Positions 21,290 to 42,370 of a stretch of DNA of 64,000 bases are shown in pieces. The first letter of the stretch is position 1, and each line of letters starts with the position of its first letter. This DNA is from Salvelinus alpinus (taxonomy: Eukaryota; Chordata; Actinopteri; Salmoniformes; Salmonidae), in contig NC_092090.1 in the NCBI RefSeq assembly GCF_045679555.1, forward strand, positions 27,985,702 through 28,049,701, read 5' to 3'. Made by a program: the position numbers and the translations under genes. The notes below the pieces were generated by a model that saw only the letters and a program-made list of their open reading frames with translations, had not been told where the DNA came from and searched no databases.

Positions 21290-22155
21290 CCTTTCATCCA
21301 TCACTTTCATCTCAGTTTTCCAAGACGGCGCAGCAGTAAGACGTGTTTTTTTTTGTCCCATGTAAATATTCAGTATTTTTCTGTTGTTTTGTATACATTT
21401 CATTATATTTCAATCTCTTTTTTCCTTTTTCGAATTAAATATGCCTTCCTGCAACCCACCTCACCCAAATGTGGTATGGATCTGCTATTTTTTAGACCTT
21501 ATAACTGGAACCTCCATCAGAATCTAGCCATCAGAAGCTAGCCAGCTAATTAGCTACTAGCTATTTAGTCATTGTTAGCGGTCTTTACCTTTAGCTCAGA
21601 CACCAGCCGCTTTAGCCCGGATAGCCAGGATAATACCTGCCGGTTTGCACAGCGCGATATGAGCACTGAGCATATTGGACTGCTTTTTTCCCACTACATC
21701 ACCGGATTCCTGCCGAAAGCTCTGGACCATTACACCAGATCTTCGCAGCTAGCTAGCTGCTACCGAGTGGCTATTGTGGCTAACGCCCTTGTCCAGAAGC
21801 ATGCACCAGTTAACCTCGAGCTAGCCTCGAGCTAGGCCCATCTCCTGGCTAGCAAAGGAAGTACACCAACTACAATACCTCTCTTGCCAATTGGCCTGGA
21901 CCCTTTGTCGACACGGAGCCCTGCCGATCCATCACGACTGGTCTGCTGGTCTGCTGACGTAATTCGGCCAATTTGCTCTCAACCGGCCTCTGCGTCGTGA
22001 ATGTTGGTGATGATCCATCTGCTAGCCCCGGCCCGCTAGCTTCCTGAACACCGTGTCTCCCGCTCGCCTAGCGTAGTAATCGACTACTTAACGACTCCCT
22101 GTATTATCTACTGCTGCTCATTGTACCCTATGATCACTCGGCTACACAGCTGATG

Positions 22156-22590
22156 TGTCACGCCCTGGCCTTAGTTATCTTTGTTTTCTTTATTATTTTA
22201 GTTAGGTCAGGGTGTGACATGGGGTATGTATGTGTTTTGTATTGTCTAGGGTTTTTTGTATGTTTATGGGGCAGTGCCTAGTCTAGGTGTATGTATGTCT
22301 ATGGTTGCCTAGATTGGTTCTCAATTAGAGACAGCTGTCTATCGTTGTCTCTGATTGGGAACCATATTTAGGCAGCCATATTCATTGGGTAGTTCGTGGG
22401 TTATTGTCTATGTCTATGTGTAGTGTTTAGTGTCAGCACTATTTTGGATTATAGCGTCACGTTCGTTCGTTTGTTGTTTTTTGTAGTTTGTAAAGTGTTC
22501 TTCATTTTCATCTTCATTAAAAATAGAAGATGTATTCAAACCACGCTGCGCTTTGGTCCTCCTCTCTTCCACCATATAACGATCGTGACA
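22156..22590 (+). repeat. 5' LTR of element 1
   Basis: 435 bp, TGTCACGCCC...GATCGTGACA. It contains an 18-bp hairpin (22316-22363), ATTAAA (22516-22521), the element's ATG (22530) and the 5' arm of the junction stem (22541-22559). Confidence 0.9.
22316..22363 (+). other. LTR hairpin, 18-bp stem and 12-nt loop
   Basis: GGTTCTCAATTAGAGACA pairs with TGTCTCTGATTGGGAACC around a 12-nt loop, with only two G-U pairs. The equivalent hairpin in element 2 has the same size. The outer G-C pair (second base) is replaced by A-T there. It also occurs in the 3' LTR (about 24397-24444). Confidence 0.8.
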
Positions 22591-24225
22591 GAATAACCCA
22601 CCAACAAAGGACCAAGCAGCGTGGTAAAAGGCAGCAGCGATCACAGGACTCATGGACTTGGGAGGAAATTCTGGATGGCGGAGGACCCTGGGCACAATCT
22701 GGAGAATATCGCCGCCCTCGTGAAGAGCTGGAGGCAGCTAAAGCCGAGAGGCGGTGGTATGAGGAGGCAGCACGGAAGCGCGGCTGGAAGCCAGAGAGGC
22801 AGCCCCAAATATTTCTTGGGGGGGGGCTCTCGGGGAGTGTGGCGAAGTCAGGTAGGAAACCTGTGCCAACTCCCCGTGCTTACCATGGAGAGCGAGAGTA
22901 CGGGCAGACACCGTGTTAAGCGGAAGAGCGCACGGTGTCTCCTGTACGTGTGCATAGCTCCTCGTATCGGCCGGGCTAGAGTGGGCATCGCGCCAGGTGC
23001 CATGAAGCCGGCTCAACGCATTTGGTCTCCAGTGCGTCTCCTCGGGCCGGTGTACATGGCACCAGCCTTACGCATGGTGTCCCCGGTTCGCCAGCACAGC
23101 CCAGTGCGGGATATTCCACCTCGCCGCACTGGCCGGGCTAAGGGGAATATTCAACCAGGTAAGGTTGGGCAGGCTCGGTGCTCAAGAGCTCCAGTACGCC
23201 TTCACGGTCCGGTCTATCCGGTGCCACCTCCTCGCCCCAGCCCAGTACCACCAGTGCCAACACCACGCACCAGGCTTCCAGTGCGTCTCCAGAGCCCTGT
23301 TCCTCCTCCACGCACTCGCCCTGTGGTGTGTGTCTCCAGCCCGGTACCACCAGTTCCAGCACCACGCACCAAGCCTCCTGTGCGTCTCCAAAGCCCTGTA
23401 CGCCCTGTTGCTGCTCCCCGCACTAGCCTTGAGGTGCGTGTCCTTAGCCCGGTACCACCAGTTCCGGCACCACGCACCAGGCCTACTGTGCGCCTCAGCA
23501 GGCCAGAGTCTGCCGTCTGCCCAGCGCCGCCTGCGCTGCCCGTCTGCCCAGCGCCGTCTGAGCCGCCCGTCTGTCCGGAGCCGTCAGAGCCGCCCGTCTG
23601 TCTGGAGCCGTCAGAGCCGCCCGTCTGTCCGGAGCCGTCAGAGCCGCCCGTCTGTCCGGAGCCGTCAGAGCCGCCCGTCTGTCCGGAGCCGTCAGAGCCG
23701 CCCGTCTGTCCGGAGCCGTCAAAGCCGCCCGTCTGTCCTGAGCCGCTAGAGCCGTCCGTCAGTCAGGAGCCGCTAGAGCCGTCCGTCAGTCAGGAGCCGC
23801 CAGAGCCGCCCGCCAGTCAGGAGCTGCCAGAGCCGCCTGCCAGTCAGGAGCTGCCAGAGCCGCCCTCCAGTCAGGAGCTGCTAGAGCTGCCCGCCAATCA
23901 GGAGCTGCCAGAGCCGCCCGCCAGTCCGGAGCCGCCCCTCCGTCCGGAGCCGCCCCTCAGTCCGGAGCCACCCCTCAGTCCGTAGCCGCCCCTCAGTCCG
24001 GAGCCGCCCCTCAGTCCGGAGCTGCCCCTCCGTCCAGTGGCGCCCTCTAGGATGGTCTTCAGTCCGGGACTCGCTGTAAGGGTCCCCACTCCAGAGGCGC
24101 CACCAAAGCAGGTATTGACTATGGTGGAGTGGGGTCCACGTCCCGCACCCGAGCCGCCGCAGTAAGAAGGCCCACCAGGACCCTCCCCTTCTGTGTCAGG
24201 TTTTGCGGCCGGAGTCCGCACCTTT
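22530..24225 (+). pseudogene. Broken proline-rich ORF of element 1
   Basis: Starts MYSNHAALWS inside the 5' LTR and crosses into the internal region. Then come a basic stretch, a WTWEEIL motif, a charged probable helix, and FLGGGLSGSVAK. A nonsense codon (TAA, 22917-22919) and an apparent ~20-bp deletion near 22965 break it. A different frame then stays open to 23985, with PVR-rich and PVPPVPAPRT repeats and nine-residue repeats (EPPVCPEPS, 27 bp each, about 23560-23750), and ends at another nonsense codon. The homologue in element 2 is intact. The function is unknown; it does not resemble a known gag or enzyme. Confidence 0.7.
22541..22624 (+). other. Junction stem spanning LTR and internal region
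   Basis: CCACGCTGCgctTTGGTCC (22541-22559, in the LTR) pairs perfectly with GGACCAAGCAGCGTGG (22609-22624, internal) as 7 + 9 bp with a 3-nt bulge. The loop is 49 nt: 31 nt of LTR end and 18 nt of internal sequence, where a primer site would be expected. Element 2 has the same geometry. Confidence 0.82.
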
Positions 24226-24235
24226 GGGGGGGTAC

Positions 24236-24625
24236 TGTCACGCCCTGGCCTTAGTTATCTTTGTTTTCTTTATTATTTTAGTTAGGTCAGGGTGTGACAT
24301 GGGGGATGTATGTGTTTGGTATTGTCTAGGGGTTTTTGTATGTTTATGGGGCAGTGTCTAGTCTAGGTGTATGTATGTCTATGGTTGCCTAGATTGGTTC
24401 TCAATTAGAGACAGCTGTCTATCGTTGTCTCTGATTGGGAACCATATTTAGGCAGCCGTATTCATTGGGTAGTTCGTGGGTTATTGTCTATGTCTATGTG
24501 TAGTGTTTAGTGTCAGCACTATTTTGGATTATAGCGTCACGTTCGTTCGTTAAAAAAATAGAAGATGTATTCAAACCACGCTGCGCTTTGGTCCTCCTCT
24601 CTTCCACCATATAACGATCGTGACA
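24236..24625 (+). repeat. 3' LTR of element 1, with 45-bp deletion
   Basis: 390 bp. It matches the 5' LTR with about half a dozen substitutions but lacks the 45 bp that hold ATTAAA. The ATG and the 5' stem arm remain. Confidence 0.9.
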
Positions 24626-24833
24626 TGATGTCTGCTGGACTCTTCATTAACACGGTACTTCATTTTGTTTTTCTGTCGGCCCCAGCCTCAAACTCAGGCC
24701 CTGTGTGTAGCTAACTGACCCTTTCTGCCTATTCATAACCATTTACCTGTTGTAGTTGTCTTAGCTGTTTACCCATTGTTGTCTCACCCGTTGTTGTCTT
24801 AGCTCTCCCAATCAACACCTGTGATTGCTTTAT

Positions 24834-36534: not shown

Positions 36535-37076
36535 CCACTGTAGTCTAGTGTGAGGGGTTATGGCAGCAGAAACGGTGTTGAAGTAATCTAGTGTTAGGGA
36601 TTATGAGAAGGGAAACAGTGTTGCTGTAGTCTAGTGAGAGGAGTTATGGCAGGGGAAACGCTGTTGCAGTAGTCTAGTGTGAGGGATTATGAGAAGGGAA
36701 ACAGTGTTGCAGTAGTCTAGTCTGAGGGGTTATGAGAAGGGAAACAGTGTTGAAGTAATCTAGTGTTAGGGATTATGAGAAGGGAAACAGTGTTGCAGTA
36801 GTCTAATGTGAGGGGTTATGGCAGGGGAAACGGTGTTGCAGTAGTCTAGTGTGAGGGGTTATGGCAGGGGAAACGGTGTTGCAGTAGTCTAGTATGAGGG
36901 GTTATGGCAGGGGAAACGGTGTTGCAGTAGTCTAGTATGAGGGGTTATGGCAGGGGAAACGGTGTTGCAGTAGTCTAGTATGAGGGGTTATGTCAGGGGA
37001 AACGGTGTTGCAGTAGTCTAGTGTGAGGGGTTATGGCAGGGGAAACAGTGTTGCAGTAGTCTAGTGTGAGGGGTTA

Positions 37077-37445
37077 TGTTACGGCTGTCCTCGCTGACAG
37101 AAGGTGTGGACCAAAACGCAGAGTGGTTAGTGTTCATTCTTTTAATGAAAGTCAACAAAACACTTCAAAATACAAAAACAACCAACGTGACAAAACCGAA
37201 ACCGTCCTGTGTGGCAACAAATCCTCCACAGGAACAAACACCCACAAAACACAAGTGAAACCCTGGCTGCCTAAGTATGATTCTCAATCAGGGACAACGA
37301 TTGACAGCTGTCTCTGATTGAGAATCATACCAGGCCGAACACAAAATCCCAACATAGAAAATCAACCATAGACAACCCACCCAACTCACGCCCTGACCAA
37401 CTAAAATAAATACAAAACAAAGGAAAATAGGTCAGGAACGTGACA
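37077..37445 (-). repeat. 3' LTR of element 2
   Basis: 369 bp. On the minus strand it starts TGTCACGTTCC and ends GCCGTAACA. It differs from the other LTR at gctgacag/gctgatag and caaatcctcc/caaaacctcc. Confidence 0.93.
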
Positions 37446-37459
37446 GAACCCCCCCCCCC

Positions 37460-39325
37460 TTAAGGTGCGAACTCCGGGCGCACCAGCACAAAGTCTAGGG
37501 GAGGGTCTGGGTGGGCGTCTGTCCACGGTGGCGGCTCTGGCGCTGGTCGTGGTCCCCACCCCACCATAGTCAACCCCCGCTTCCGTGGCCTCCTCCCAAT
37601 ATCCACCCTCCATGTCAATCCCACTATTCCAAAGGGCAGTAACGGACTGAGGGGTAGCACCTGACTGAGGGGCAGCACCGGACTGAGGGGCAGCACCGGA
37701 CTGAGGGGCAGCACCGGACTGAGGGGCGGATCCTGGCTGGCTGGCTCTGGCGGATCCTGGCTGGCTGGCTCTGGCGGATCCTGGCTGGCTGGCTCTGGCG
37801 GATCCTGGCTGGACGGCTCTGGCGGATCCTGGCTGGACGACTCTGGCTGGTCCTGGCTGGACGACTCTGGCTGGTCCTGGCTGGACGACTCTGGCTGGTC
37901 CTGGCTGGACGACTCTGGCTGGTCCTGGCTGGACGACTCTGGCTGGTCCTGGCTGGACGACTCTGGCTGGTCCTGGCTGGACGACTCTGGCTGGTCCTGG
38001 CTGGACGACTCTGGCTGGTCCTGGCTGGACGACTCTGGCTGGTCCTGGCTGGACGACTCTGGCTGGTCCTGGCTGGACGACTCTGGCTGGTCCTGGCTGG
38101 ACGACTCTGGCTGGTCCTGGCTGGACGACTCTGGCTGGTCCTGGCTGGACGACTCTGGCTGGTCCTGGCTGGACGACTCTGGCTGGTCCTGGCTGGACGA
38201 CTCTGGCTGGTCCTGGCTGGACGGCTCTGAAGGCTCGGGACAGACGGGCAGCTCAGGACAGACGGGCAGCTCTGACGGCTCGGGACAGACGGGCAGCGCT
38301 GGGCAGGCAGACAGTTCAGACAACGCTGGGCAGGCAGACAGTTCAGGCAGCGCTGAGCAGGCAAGCAGCGCAGGCGGCGTTGGGCAGACGGCCGACTCTG
38401 ACCTGCTGATGCGCACAGTAGGCCTGGTGCGTGGTGCCGGAACTGGAGGCACTGGGCTGGAGACACGCACCACAGGGAGAGTGCGTGGAGGAGGAACAGG
38501 GCTCTGGAAACGCACTGGAAGCCTGGTGCGTGGTGTCGGCACTGATGGTACTGGGCTGGGGTGGGAAGGTGGCGCCGGATATACCGGACCGTGAAGGAGG
38601 ACACGCGCTCTTGAGCACCGAGCCTCCCCAACCTTACCAGGTTGAATGGTCCCCGTAGCCCTGCCAGTGCGGCGAGGTGGAATAGCCCGCACTGGGCTAT
38701 GCTGGCGAACCGGGGACACCATCTGTAAGGCTGGTGCCATGTACGCCGGCCCGAGGAGACGTACTGGAGGCCAGATATGTTGGGCCGGCTTCATGGCACC
38801 CGGCTCGATGCCCAACCTAGCCCTACCAGTGCGGCAAGGTGGAATAGCCCGCACTGGACTAAGCACGCGTACTGGGGACACCGTGCGCTTTACCGCATAA
38901 CACGGTGTCTGACCAGTACGACGCCCTCTCACTCCACGGTAAGCCCGGGGAGTTGGCTCAGGTATCCAACCCGGCTTCGCCACACTCCCCTTTAGCTCCC
39001 CCCCAAGAAATTTTTGGGTGAGCCTCTCGGGCTTCCGTGCTAGCCGCGTACCCTCATACCTCTGGTTCCTCTCTCCGGTTGCCTCTGCTCTCCTCGCTGC
39101 CTCCAGCTGTTCCCATGGGAGGCGATCCTTTCCAGCCAGGATCTCCTCCCATGTGTAGCAACCCTTGCCGTTCAAGACGTCTTCCCATGTCCATTCCTCT
39201 GTCTGTCTTTGCTGCTGTCGCTGCCCTTCTCCACTCCGCTTGGTCCGTTTGTGGTGGGTGTTTCTGTTACGGCTGTCCTCGCTGATAGAAGGTGTGGACC
39301 AAAACGCAGAGTGGTTAGTGTTCAT
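37460..39325 (-). CDS. Proline-rich protein of LTR element 2, unknown function
   Basis: 621 codons from the ATG aligned with element 1's start (MNTNHSAFWS); an upstream in-frame ATG at 39346 would add seven residues. Both starts lie inside the 5' LTR, so about 20 residues are LTR-encoded. Order: a basic Arg/Gln-rich stretch; two related motifs WTWEDVL and YTWEEIL (about residues 45-65); a charged segment probably helical; FLGGELKGSVAK; PVR-rich repeats; PVPPVPAPRTR repeats; short cysteine/proline units; about 15 copies of the eight-residue unit SSQDQPES encoded by perfect 24-bp repeats (about 37846-38225); then PPLSPVLPLSP repeats and a tail WGPRPAPEPPPW. The stop TAA lies directly before the G-run. 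No known domain was recognised; it may be a structural or RNA-binding protein. No frame damage is visible. Confidence 0.6.
   Translation of the reverse strand: MNTNHSAFWSTPSISEDSRNRNTHHKRTKRSGEGQRQQQRQTEEWTWEDVLNGKGCYTWEEILAGKDRLPWEQLEAARRAEATGERNQRYEGTRLARKPERLTQKFLGGELKGSVAKPGWIPEPTPRAYRGVRGRRTGQTPCYAVKRTVSPVRVLSPVRAIPPCRTGRARLGIEPGAMKPAQHIWPPVRLLGPAYMAPALQMVSPVRQHSPVRAIPPRRTGRATGTIQPGKVGEARCSRARVLLHGPVYPAPPSHPSPVPSVPTPRTRLPVRFQSPVPPPRTLPVVRVSSPVPPVPAPRTRPTVRISRSESAVCPTPPALLACSALPELSACPALSELSACPALPVCPEPSELPVCPELPVCPEPSEPSSQDQPESSSQDQPESSSQDQPESSSQDQPESSSQDQPESSSQDQPESSSQDQPESSSQDQPESSSQDQPESSSQDQPESSSQDQPESSSQDQPESSSQDQPESSSQDQPESSSQDQPESSSQDQPESSSQDPPEPSSQDPPEPASQDPPEPASQDPPEPASQDPPLSPVLPLSPVLPLSPVLPLSQVLPLSPLLPFGIVGLTWRVDIGRRPRKRGLTMVGWGPRPAPEPPPWTDAHPDPPLDFVLVRPEFAP
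39231..39314 (-). other. Junction stem of element 2
   Basis: On the minus strand CCACTCTGCgttTTGGTCC (39314-39296, LTR) pairs with GGACCAAGCGGAGTGG (39246-39231, internal): 9 bp including one T-G pair, a 3-nt bulge, then 7 bp, with a 49-nt loop. Bulge size, loop length and position of the LTR edge (31 nt into the loop) are identical to element 1. Confidence 0.85.
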
Positions 39326-39633
39326 TCTTTTAATGAAAGTCAACAAAACACTTCAAAATACAAAAACAACCAACGTGACAAAACCGAAACCGTCCTGTGT
39401 GGCAACAAAACCTCCACAGGAACAAACACCCACAAAACACAAGTGAAACCCTGGCTGCCTAAGTATGATTCTCAATCAGGGACAACGATTGACAGCTGTC
39501 TCTGATTGAGAATCATACCAGGCCGAACACAAAATCCCAACATAGAAAATCAACCATAGACAACCCACCCAACTCACGCCCTGACCAACTAAAATAAATA
39601 CAAAACAAAGGAAAATAGGTCAGGAACGTGACA
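39265..39633 (-). repeat. 5' LTR of element 2
   Basis: 369 bp. Contains the hairpin (39467-39514), ATTAAA just before the ATG on the minus strand, the ATG at 39325-39323 and the 5' arm of the junction stem. Confidence 0.93.
39467..39514 (-). other. LTR hairpin of element 2
   Basis: On the minus strand GATTCTCAATCAGAGACA pairs with TGTCCCTGATTGAGAATC (one G-U-type pair) around the 12-nt loop gctgtcaatcgt. It corresponds base for base to the hairpin at 22316-22363. A second copy lies in the 3' LTR. Confidence 0.85.
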
Positions 39634-42370
39634 GGTTATGGCAGGTGAAACAGTGTTAGAGTAGTCTAGTGTGAGGGGTTATGTCAGGGGAAACGGTGTT
39701 GCAGTAGTCTAGTGAGGGGTTATGGCAGGAGAAACAGTGTTGCAGATGTCTAGAGTGAGGGGTTATGGCAGGGAAACAGTGTTGCAGATGTCTAGTGTGA
39801 GGGGTTATGAGAAGGGAAACAGTGTTGCAGATGTCTAGTGTGAGGGGTTATGAGAAGGGAAACAGTGTTGCAGATGTCTAGAATGAGGGATTATGAGAAG
39901 GGAAACAGTGTTGCTGTAGTCTAGTGTGAGGGGTTATGAGAAGGGAAACAGTGTTGAAGTAATCTAGTGTTAGGGATTATGAGAAGAGAAACAGTGTTGC
40001 AGATGTCTAGAATGAGGGATTATGAGAAGAGAAACAGTGTTGCAGATGTCTAGAATGAGGGGTTATGAGAAGGGAAACAGTGTTGCAGTAGTCTAGTATG
40101 AGGGGTTATGGCAGGGGAAACAGTGTTGCAGATGTCTAGAGTGAGGGGTTATGAGAAGGGAAACAGTGTTGCAGTAGTCTAGTGTGAGGGGTTATGAGAA
40201 GGGAAACAGTGTTGCAGATGTCTAGTGTGAGGGGTTATGAGAAGGGAAACAGTGTTGCAGATGTCTAGTGTGAGGGGTTATGAGAAGGGAAACAGTGTTG
40301 CTGTAGTCTAGTGTGAGGGGTTATGAGAAGGGAAACAGTGTTGAAGTAATCTAGTGTTAGGGATTATGAGAAGAGAAACAGTGTTGCAGTAGTCTAGTGT
40401 GAGGGGTTATGGCAGGGGAAACGGTGTTGCAGTAGTCTAGTGTGAGGGGTTATGGCAGGGGAAACGGTGTTGCAGTAGTCTAGTGTGAGGGGTTATGGCA
40501 GGGGAAACAGTGTTGCAGTAGTCTAGTATGAGGGGTTATGGCAGGGGAAACGGTGTTGCAGTAGTCTAGTGTGAGGGGTTATGTCAGGGGAAACGGTGTT
40601 GCAGTAGTCTAGTGAGGGGTTATGGCAGGGGAAACGGTGTTGCAGTAGTCTAGTGTGAGGGGTTATGGCAGGGGAAACAGTGTTGCAGTAGTCTAGTGTG
40701 AGGGGTTATGGCAGGGGAAACAGTGTTGCAGTAATCTAGTGTTAGGGGTTATGAGAAGGGAAACAGTGTTGCTGTAGTCTAGTGTGAGGGGTTATGGCAG
40801 GGGAAACAGTGTTGAAGTAATCTAGTGTAAGGGGTTATGAGAAGGGAAACAGTGTTGCTGTAGTCTAGTGTGAGGGATTATGAGAAGGGAAACAGTGTTG
40901 CTGTAGTCTAGTGTGAGGGATTATGAGAAGGGAAACAGTGTTGCTGTAGTCTAGTGTGAGGGGTTACGGCAGGGGAAACGGTGTTGCAGTAGTCTAGTGT
41001 GAGGGGTTATGGCAGGGGAAACAGTGTTGCAGTAGTCTAGTGTGAGGGGTTATGGCAGGGGAAACGGTGTTGCAGTAGTCTAATGTGAGGGGTTATGGCA
41101 GGAGAAACGGTGTTGCAGTAGTCTAGTGTGAGGGGTTATGGAAGGGGAATCAGTGTTACAGTAGTCTAGTGTGAGGGGTTATGGAAGGGGAAACAGTGTT
41201 GCAGTAGTCTAGTGTGAGGGGTTATGGCAGGTGAAACGGTGTTGCAGTAGTCTAGTGTGAGGGGTTATGGCAGGGGAAACGGTGTTGCAGTAGTCTAGTG
41301 TGAGGGGTTATGGCAGGGGAAACAGTGTTGCAGTAGTCTAGTGTGAGGGGTTATGACAGGGGAAACAGTGTTGCAGTAGTCTAGTGTGAGGGGTTATGGC
41401 AGGGGAAACGGTGTTGCAGTAGTCTAGTGTGAGGGGTTATGGCAGGGGAAACGGTGTTGCAGTAGTCTAGTGTGAGGGGTTATGGCAGGAGAAACAGTGT
41501 TGCAGTAGTCTAGTGTGAGGGGTTATGGCAGGGGAAACGGTGTTGCAGTAGTCTAGTGTGAGGGGTTATGGCAGGGGAAACGGTGTTGCAGTAGTCTAGT
41601 GTGAGGGGTTATGGCAGGGGAAACGGTGTTGCAGTAGTCTAGTGTGAGGGGTTATGGCAGGGGAAACGCTGTTGCAGTAGTCTAGTGTGAGGGGTTATGG
41701 CAGGGGAAACGGTGTTGCAGTAGTCTAGTGTGAGGGGTTATGGCAGGGGAAACGGTGTTGCAGTAGTCTAGTGTGAGGGGTTATGGCAGGGAAATGGTGT
41801 TGCAGTAGTCTAGTGTGAGGGGTTATGGCAGGGGAAACGCTGTTGCAGTAGTCTAGTGTGAGGGGTTATGGCAGGGGAAACGGTGTTGCAGTAGTCTAGT
41901 GTGAGGGGTTATGGCAGTGGAAACAGTGTTGCAGTAGTCTAGTGTGAGGGGTTATGGGAGGAGAAATGCTGTTGCAGTAGTCTAGTGTGAGGGGTTATGG
42001 CAGGGGAAACAGTGTTGCAGTAGTCTAGTGTGAGGGGTTATGGCAGGGGAAACGGTGTTGCAGTAGTCTAGTGTGAGGGGTTATGGCAGGGGAAACAGTG
42101 TTGCAGTAGTCTAGTGTGAGGGGTTATGGCAGGGGAAACAGTGTTGCAGTAGTCTAGTGTGAGGGGTTATGGCAGGGGAAACGGTGTTGCAGTAGTCTAG
42201 TGTGAGGGGTTATGGCAGGGGAAACAGTGTTGCAGTAGTCTAGTGTGAGGGGTTATGGCAGGGGAAACAGTGTTGCAGTAGTCTAGTGTGTGGTGTGGGA
42301 ATAATGACAAGCGAACCTGGTGAGCTTTTTGTTCACATTGCCCTAAAAAGGGAATCGAACTACAGAATTC

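What the first reader, a model, noticed from the sequence alone, without database searches (positions are those of the whole stretch)
22541..22624. Covarying stem clamps the LTR/internal junction in both elements
Seen: element 1 pairs 22541-22559 with 22609-22624, element 2 pairs 39314-39296 with 39246-39231 (minus). Both give 9 bp, a 3-nt bulge, 7 bp and a loop of exactly 49 nt, with the LTR edge exactly 31 nt into the loop. One pair differs in a compensatory way (CACGC/GCGTG versus CACTC/GAGTG) and another is T-A versus T-G. The compensatory change alters the encoded amino acid on both arms, so coding constraint does not explain it. The 18 nt after the LTR (gaa-ta/ac-acccacca...) lack the TGG expected of a tRNA primer site. 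Retroviral U5-IR stems and the Tf1 self-primer are known precedents. Inference: this structure positions or replaces the primer for reverse transcription.
Basis: partly seen in the sequence, partly recalled or inferred. Interest (0 to 1): 0.8.

Follow-up and report, generated by a model that had tools for sequence, protein, structure and literature searches.

The report
Self-primed salmonid LTR retrotransposon family

Summary
The stem is real at the stated coordinates in both elements. This is Tf1/sushi self-priming anatomy; the stem is one of the duplexes flanking the primer duplex in the published "pretzel" fold. In the window's own 2.37-Gb salmonid genome the primer-site/arm-B signature occurs 5,184 times (reversed control: 5). 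In a positional sample of 50 junctions, 39 carry the perfect complement of their own primer site and 46 at least 9/10; eight primer-site types occur, six with perfect matches; complements of other types occur in 4 of 350 tests. A TATA-like box lies 30-32 nt upstream in 45 of 46. The stem also covaries (z 9.7; eight other registers at most 2.4 in size). The exact 49/31-nt loop geometry is not a family rule. Neither element encodes pol, so an enzyme in trans is needed. Mechanism known; I found no description of this family. Transcription start and priming are inferred, not shown.

The parts
22156..22590 (+). element 1, 5' LTR (TGTCACG...CGTGACA); 5-bp target duplication TGATG at 22151-22155 and 24626-24630
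22365..22370 (+). TATA-like box TATTTA, 31 nt upstream of the self-primer
   Evidence: sequence; family-wide position
22396..22405 (+). putative self-primer GTGGGTTATT = inferred mRNA 5' end (U3/R border)
   Evidence: corresponding site in 46 of 50 sampled junctions at 9/10 or better
22456..22467 (+). R strand of the candidate upstream flanking duplex (pairs with 22578-22589; one T.T mismatch)
   Evidence: family-level test
22516..22521 (+). poly(A) signal ATTAAA (inferred R/U5 border just downstream)
   Evidence: A[AT]TAAA found in 42 of 46 sampled junctions, 62-97 nt before the LTR end
22530..22532 (+). ATG of the ORF that starts inside the LTR and reads through the stem and primer binding site
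22541..22559 (+). stem arm A (pairs 22541-22549 and 22553-22559; bulge 22550-22552)
22578..22589 (+). U5 tail, other strand of the candidate upstream flanking duplex
22592..22601 (+). primer binding site AATAACCCAC (one spacer G, 22591, after the LTR)
22609..22624 (+). stem arm B
24226..24232 (+). G-run just upstream of the 3' LTR, candidate polypurine tract
   Evidence: sequence; function inferred
24236..24625 (+). element 1, 3' LTR (390 nt against 435 nt of the 5' LTR)
39265..39633 (-). element 2, 5' LTR (TGTCACG...CGTAACA); target duplication TAACC at 39634-39638 and 37072-37076
39460..39465 (-). TATA-like box TACTTA, 32 nt upstream of the self-primer
39424..39433 (-). putative self-primer GTGGGTGTTT
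39323..39325 (-). ATG of the ORF inside the LTR, 8 nt before arm A
39296..39314 (-). stem arm A of element 2
39254..39263 (-). primer binding site AAACACCCAC of element 2 (spacer G at 39264)
39231..39246 (-). stem arm B of element 2
37077..37445 (-). element 2, 3' LTR

Best explanation
The two elements are non-autonomous LTR retrotransposons of one very large salmonid superfamily whose RNA carries a Tf1/sushi-type self-priming signal. Transcription starts about 31 nt below the TATA-like box (inferred from its position). The first 10 nt of the mRNA pair with the 10 nt that begin one base after the 5' LTR (shown as covarying complementarity). By analogy with Tf1, RNase H of a reverse transcriptase supplied in trans cuts the mRNA after nt 10 or 11 and the new 3' end primes minus-strand DNA (inferred). 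I found no pol in either element, so the enzyme must come from elsewhere (inferred; donor not identified).
For: Primer/PBS: 10 perfect pairs in both elements with two double-compensatory pairs; 0 of 5000 column shuffles reach a joint run of 10; exchanging the primer sites between the elements leaves at best 8 and 6 pairs, elsewhere. Own genome: signature 5,184 times vs 5 for the reversed control. 50-junction sample: 39 perfect, 46 at 9/10 or better; own-type complement in 39 of 50, other types in 4 of 350; all four Watson-Crick combinations at pair 8; TATA-like box at -30 to -32 in 45 of 46. At least 14 changes of PBS type and 15 of primer type on a tree of 48 rows built without primer, PBS and stem arms. 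Nt 11 is G or A in 46 of 46, opposite a spacer G present in 50 of 50, so the duplex ends at 10 bp. Decoys: PBS:primer z 11.5 vs at most 2.0. Stem: 59 distinct stems, arm A anchored without reference to arm B, z 9.7 at register 0, at most 2.4 in size at eight other registers; protein-level test 0 of 20000 permutations, excess +0.55 at register 0 against at most +0.18 at 18 others. Upstream duplex: z 4.5, decoys at most 1.3. Pretzel definition: PMC10085805, passages; self-primer criterion (10 bp or more, starting 0-5 bp after the LTR): PMC6317226, passages.
Against: No transcript-start or cDNA data. The sampling pattern fixes ACCCACC and GGACCAAGC, so on the selected side only PBS pairs 7-10 and stem pairs 1-7 were free to vary, and copies that lost the pattern were never seen. 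4 of 50 sampled junctions have only 6-8 of 10; the two sampled copies with element 1's own PBS type are among them (8 and 7), so that type is supported by element 1 and its close copies, not by the sample. The own-versus-other test searched the stretch around each copy's best own match. Within single elements the primer match alone is modest (35/2000 and 64/2000 shuffles). The tree is a quick one (12 of 41 inner branches starred); independent pairs for the primer agree in the lines visible (2 of 2, 4 of 4, 2 of 2, 3.7 of 4) but are too few for significance. For the stem many changes are one-sided on the tree. An exact test of the last 6 LTR bases against R failed, 0 of 46; the upstream duplex appears only when G-U pairs and a mismatch are allowed, and its register varies. 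No autonomous partner was found (search did not complete).
Confidence: 0.9

Rival explanations
1. A host tRNA (3' end, or an internal fragment) primes, and the stem is a retroviral-type U5-IR/U5-leader helix that presents the site.
For: The stem has the topology of U5-leader helices (recalled); many LTR elements use tRNAs (recalled).
Against: No TGG in the 18 nt after either LTR. Six PBS types in the sample each match a site in their own LTR perfectly, with four different bases at one position, and a seventh does so in element 1 and its close copies; one tRNA cannot match all of them. Complementarity to fish tRNAs was not searched directly.
Confidence: 0.03
2. The stem serves translation start, packaging or dimerisation and not priming; it begins 8 nt downstream of an ATG.
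For: The last ATG before arm A is 8 or 11 nt away in 45 of 46 sampled junctions; loop lengths keep the reading frame in 47 of 50.
Against: It does not explain why the loop holds a site that covaries with the LTR at the TATA+31 position. A double role is possible.
Confidence: 0.1
3. Shared coding constraint on an ORF across the LTR edge explains the conservation, and the pairing is incidental.
For: The ORF is annotated in many salmonid proteins.
Against: The compensatory change between the elements alters amino acids on both arms; the pairing excess stands out at register 0; the primer partner lies upstream of the ORF start.
Confidence: 0.03
4. The complementarity is a DNA-level inverted repeat with no role in RNA.
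For: The LTR has other inverted repeats, e.g. a 14-bp one just upstream of the TATA-like box.
Against: The complement to the leader sits at a nearly fixed distance from the TATA-like box (45 of 46 within 30-32 nt) although its distance to the LTR end runs from 129 to 297 nt in 45 of these 46 copies and is 310 nt in the other, L221.
Confidence: 0.02

Closest known systems
Tf1 / Tj1 / Tosmo self-primed LTR retrotransposons of fission yeasts (pretzel RNA)
   Same: PBS next to the 5' LTR complementary to the mRNA 5' end; flanking duplexes between PBS-adjacent sequence and LTR sequence downstream of the primer; LTR ends in CA (PMC10085805 and PMC4600332, passages read).
   Different: Here 10 bp (Tf1 has 11, recalled); no pol found; the ORF starts inside the LTR and overlaps the signal; vertebrate host; start site and priming not measured.
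Vertebrate Tf1/sushi group (sushi-ichi and relatives; Butler et al. 2001, not read, known here only through citations)
   Same: Fish host; LTR ends fit the Sushi motif TGTYANR...CNTNACA; [quoted passage not shown]
   Different: No pol and therefore no chromodomain integrase to place it by phylogeny; the LTR ends also fit the rGmr1 motif of the same paper.
TRIM/LARD-type non-autonomous LTR elements (class features recalled)
   Same: Two LTRs, 5-bp target duplications, about 2.5 kb, no pol found.
   Different: A long ORF and a self-primer instead of a tRNA site.
Retroviral U5-IR / U5-leader helix (recalled)
   Same: U5 pairs with the leader just downstream of the primer site, enclosing it.
   Different: The primer is inferred to be the element's own RNA, not a tRNA.

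Membership tests
Tf1/sushi-type self-priming signal (mechanism) | No tRNA primer site after the 5' LTR | tested here: met
   no TGG in the 18 nt after either LTR
Tf1/sushi-type self-priming signal (mechanism) | PBS of 10 or more bp, 0-5 nt after the LTR, complementary to a site in the 5' LTR | tested here: met
   both elements; 39 of 50 perfect
Tf1/sushi-type self-priming signal (mechanism) | Downstream PBS-adjacent sequence pairs with LTR sequence downstream of the primer | tested here: met
Tf1/sushi-type self-priming signal (mechanism) | Upstream PBS-adjacent sequence pairs with LTR sequence downstream of the primer | tested here: inconclusive
   exact test 0 of 46; one search relaxed test z 4.5 vs decoys at most 1.3; 11 pairs with one mismatch in element 1, weaker in element 2
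Tf1/sushi-type self-priming signal (mechanism) | The primer is the mRNA 5' end and is cut by RNase H | not testable with these tools
   only the TATA-like box at -30 to -32 (45 of 46)
Tf1/sushi chromovirus lineage | pol with chromodomain integrase, placed by phylogeny | tested here: not met
   no pol-like ORF of 200 aa or more between the LTRs; element 2 ORF without Pfam match at E up to 0.1; the element 1 ORF was not scanned
Tf1/sushi chromovirus lineage | LTR ends TGTYANR...CNTNACA | tested here: met
   against PMC3601003; the rGmr1 motif fits as well, so not diagnostic
tRNA-primed LTR retrotransposon | TGG-starting site complementary to a tRNA 3' end | tested here: not met
   covariation with the LTR
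Non-autonomous LTR retrotransposon | LTR pair, target duplication, no pol | tested here: met

The most novel reading that the evidence does not exclude
The priming fold lies inside a translated ORF: the start codon sits 8 or 11 nt before arm A and the frame runs through the stem, the primer site and arm B. A ribosome would have to melt the fold, so translation and priming would exclude each other on one RNA, a built-in switch between making protein and making DNA. In addition, the fold would be the handle by which thousands of pol-less copies borrow a foreign self-priming reverse transcriptase.
Probability: 0.25. Interest if true: 0.65.

Novelty: new member of a known kind. Interest (0 to 1): 0.5.

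Why it matters
[quoted passage not shown] A single salmonid genome offers more than 5,000 natural variants of one such signal in which primer, primer site and clamp change together. That shows which pairs are needed, gives a ready training set for finding self-primed elements where tRNA-based annotation fails, and suggests how a very abundant pol-less salmonid repeat could replicate.

Tried and rejected
Rfam: no match at the gathering scores. Pfam: none for the element 2 ORF. ARAGORN finds no tRNA in the window. One search used a wrong LTR border for element 2 and so gave only 7 bp there; corrected. One search translated element 1 in the wrong frame; corrected. The first stem count on the sample chose arm A by its fit to arm B, which favours pairing; I rely, where arm A is anchored independently. 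The exact-match test for the third duplex failed; a relaxed test with decoys supported it. A search for the family PF16297 (to my recollection a sushi-type gag domain) in the own genome, to find an autonomous partner, did not complete. Papers: no hit for six arm strings; none for self-prim plus teleost plus LTR retrotransposon; two for sushi plus self-prim plus fish plus retrotransposon, neither on salmonids by title; no listed title (20 of 44 listed; 5 of 5; 20 of 41) describes this family. Repbase and most subscription papers are outside that library. The protein-level stem test used 16 of the 30 proteins found plus the two elements; P0004, P0020, P0025 and P0026 carry recognisable or altered arms but were not in it, and others lack one or both arms.

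Full report
What the window is. The two elements lie in a 2.37-Gb genome of which the window is G000:C5:27985702-28049701. The relatives of the element-2 ORF that bear an organism name are all salmonid proteins (Salvelinus, Oncorhynchus), so the host is a salmonid; the species was not identified.

Anatomy. Element 1 (plus strand) has LTRs at 22156-22590 and 24236-24625 and the target duplication TGATG. Element 2 (minus strand) has LTRs at 39633-39265 and 37445-37077 and the target duplication TAACC. No pol-like ORF of 200 aa or more lies between the LTRs; the element-2 ORF has no Pfam match at E up to 0.1 (the element-1 ORF was not scanned). The interiors of the two elements are homologous. 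They are non-autonomous members of one superfamily.

The stem. A 3-nt bulge is found in 48 of 50 sampled junctions; the exact loop size is not general. In the same 50 the 5' part of the loop is 22-55 nt, while the distance from LTR end to arm B is 18 nt in 46 (which places arm A by its best fit to arm B).

The missing primer. The ten bases that begin one base after the LTR are perfectly complementary to a site inside the LTR: GTGGGTTATT at 22396 in element 1 and GTGGGTGTTT at 39433 in element 2. Between the elements two of these ten pairs change on both sides. No column shuffle of 5000 gives a joint run of ten; exchanging the primer sites between the elements leaves at best 8 and 6 pairs, elsewhere. 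In each element alone the match is modest evidence (35 and 64 of 2000 shuffles do as well). A TATA-like hexamer lies 31 or 32 nt upstream, where a transcript would be expected to begin.

Family test. The pattern ACCCACC N(2-12) GGACCAAGC occurs 5,184 times in the genome, its reversed control 5 times. The pattern fixes the inner part of the primer site and the first half of arm B, so the free positions carry the evidence. In 39 of 50 the LTR holds the perfect complement of that copy's own primer site, in 7 more 9 of 10, in 4 fewer (6-8). Eight primer-site types occur; six have perfect matches in the sample. Of the other two, one (2 copies) matches 9 of 10, and the type of element 1 (2 copies) matches only 8 and 7 there but is perfect in element 1 and close copies. 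Complements of other types occur in 4 of 350 tests; this test searched the stretch around each copy's best own match. Pair 8 is G-C 15, A-T 16, T-A 10, C-G 3 and A.C 2; pair 7 is G-C 24, A-T 19, T-A 3. A TA[TC]WWA box starts at -30, -31 or -32 in 45 of the 46 copies with 9/10 or better. Nt 11 is G (42) or A (4), opposite a spacer G seen in 50 of 50, so the duplex ends at ten pairs.

Relatedness. On a quick tree of 48 rows (44 different) made from LTR sequence without primer, PBS and stem arms, primer-site type changes at least 14 times and primer type at least 15 times. Single-pair sign tests visible in that output agree but are each too small for significance, and the output was cut. With decoys made from the same sequences (reversed, complemented, reverse-complemented), PBS and primer show z 11.5 against at most 2.0. 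Copies found by similarity to the window elements behave alike, the window copies included: with the element-1 junction 18 of 25 perfect (30 loci, 5 lacked the pattern), with the element-2 junction 27 of 30.

Another species. Two proteins are translations that run through the R region. P0026 (Oncorhynchus mykiss) reads ...VCGWLF... upstream and ...RTTH... at the primer site. TGG for W fixes G-G in the primer, and ACN-ACN-CAY at the site allows the matching C-C; this is a third combination, with a TAY-TTY codon pair 31 nt upstream (sequence; reading by hand). P0030, a protein from a JGI contig without an organism name, reads ...SCGCLF..., compatible with the element-2 primer; no primer site can be recognised in it.

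Covariation of the stem. With arm A located only by its TTGG[TC]C[CT] anchor, 104 of 105 junctions (of 110 loci) give 59 distinct stems; Watson-Crick cells in the 9-bp half are 482 of 531 against 431.6 (sd 5.2) when arms are exchanged, and no other register from -4 to +4 exceeds a z of 2.4 in size. Separately, 18 arm pairs read from proteins and the window can pair better with their own partner than with exchanged ones (0 of 20000; 1 of 20000 for the 9-bp half alone). The excess is +0.55 pairs at register 0 and at most +0.18 (z 2.3) at 18 other registers. Against this, on the tree many single-arm changes are not matched on the other side, so the stem tolerates some mismatches.

The third duplex. 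In Tf1-like elements two duplexes flank the primer duplex (PMC10085805, passages). For the upstream one an exact test failed (0 of 46). Allowing G-U and one mismatch, the U5 tail pairs with its own R region better than with others (44 rows, z 4.5, 0 of 4000; mean percentile of the own R only 0.57) while reversed, complemented and reverse-complemented decoys do not (z 0.2, -0.3, 1.3). The longest helices, up to 14 bp and ending just before the terminal CA, are in copies ending CGTGACA, though not in all of them. In element 1 it is 11 pairs with one T.T mismatch. I call it moderately supported in the family and uncertain in element 2.

Coding overlap. The ORF starts inside the LTR; the last ATG before arm A is 8 or 11 nt away in 45 of 46. 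Loop lengths on the 5' side differ by multiples of three in 47 of 50 (counted by hand), so the reading frame across the junction is mostly kept. The fold and the ORF share the same bases; the compensatory change between the two elements alters amino acids on both arms.

Mechanism. Shown: covarying complementarity of primer and PBS, the covarying stem, the nearly fixed distance to a TATA-like box, absence of a tRNA site. Inferred: the transcript starts at the GTGGGT site, the mRNA 5' end anneals to the PBS, RNase H cuts after nt 10-11, and a reverse transcriptase supplied in trans extends the primer. The donor enzyme was not found because that search did not complete.

Known or new. The mechanism is that of the Tf1/sushi group: PMC10085805, PMC4600332, PMC6317226 and PMC3601003, passages read. 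Butler et al. 2001 and the Lin and Levin papers are known to me only through citations there and from memory. I found no description of this salmonid family or of self-priming in it among the listings searched; Repbase and most subscription journals were not searched. On re-checking my calls I corrected the count of primer-site types with perfect matches from eight to six and some wordings; the odds did not need changing.

Noticed in passing
36540-37078 and 39634-42290: A 43-bp minisatellite array (about 12 and 62 copies) is split by element 2, which inserted into it.
   Followed up: partly
RNA nt 11-30 with nt 35-70 downstream of the primer (about 22406-22465 in element 1): A helix just after the self-primer also pairs better with its own partner than with exchanged ones (42 distinct copies, z 6.8; decoys 2.0, 0.4, 0.0). 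It is not part of the published three-duplex fold as I read it and could mark the cleavage site.
   Followed up: partly
1-2193: Open reading frame with RNase H, integrase zinc-binding and integrase core domains, cut by the window start; a Gypsy-type pol whose relation to the two elements I did not test.
   Followed up: no
23513-23934 and 37731-38229: 27-bp and 24-bp tandem repeats in the ORFs of elements 1 and 2 encode short peptide repeats.
   Followed up: no
22156-22590 vs 24236-24625: The 3' LTR of element 1 is 45 nt shorter than the 5' LTR; the gap lies just upstream of the poly(A) region.
   Followed up: no
proteins P0011, P0016, P0019, P0020, P0023, P0024, P0026, P0027, P0029: Pieces of this element are annotated inside host genes of salmonids (pyrin-domain, TRIM15-like, alkylglycerol monooxygenase-like, phosphatase, zinc-finger, RecA-family, carboxypeptidase-like and other proteins), through exonisation or misannotation.
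   Followed up: no
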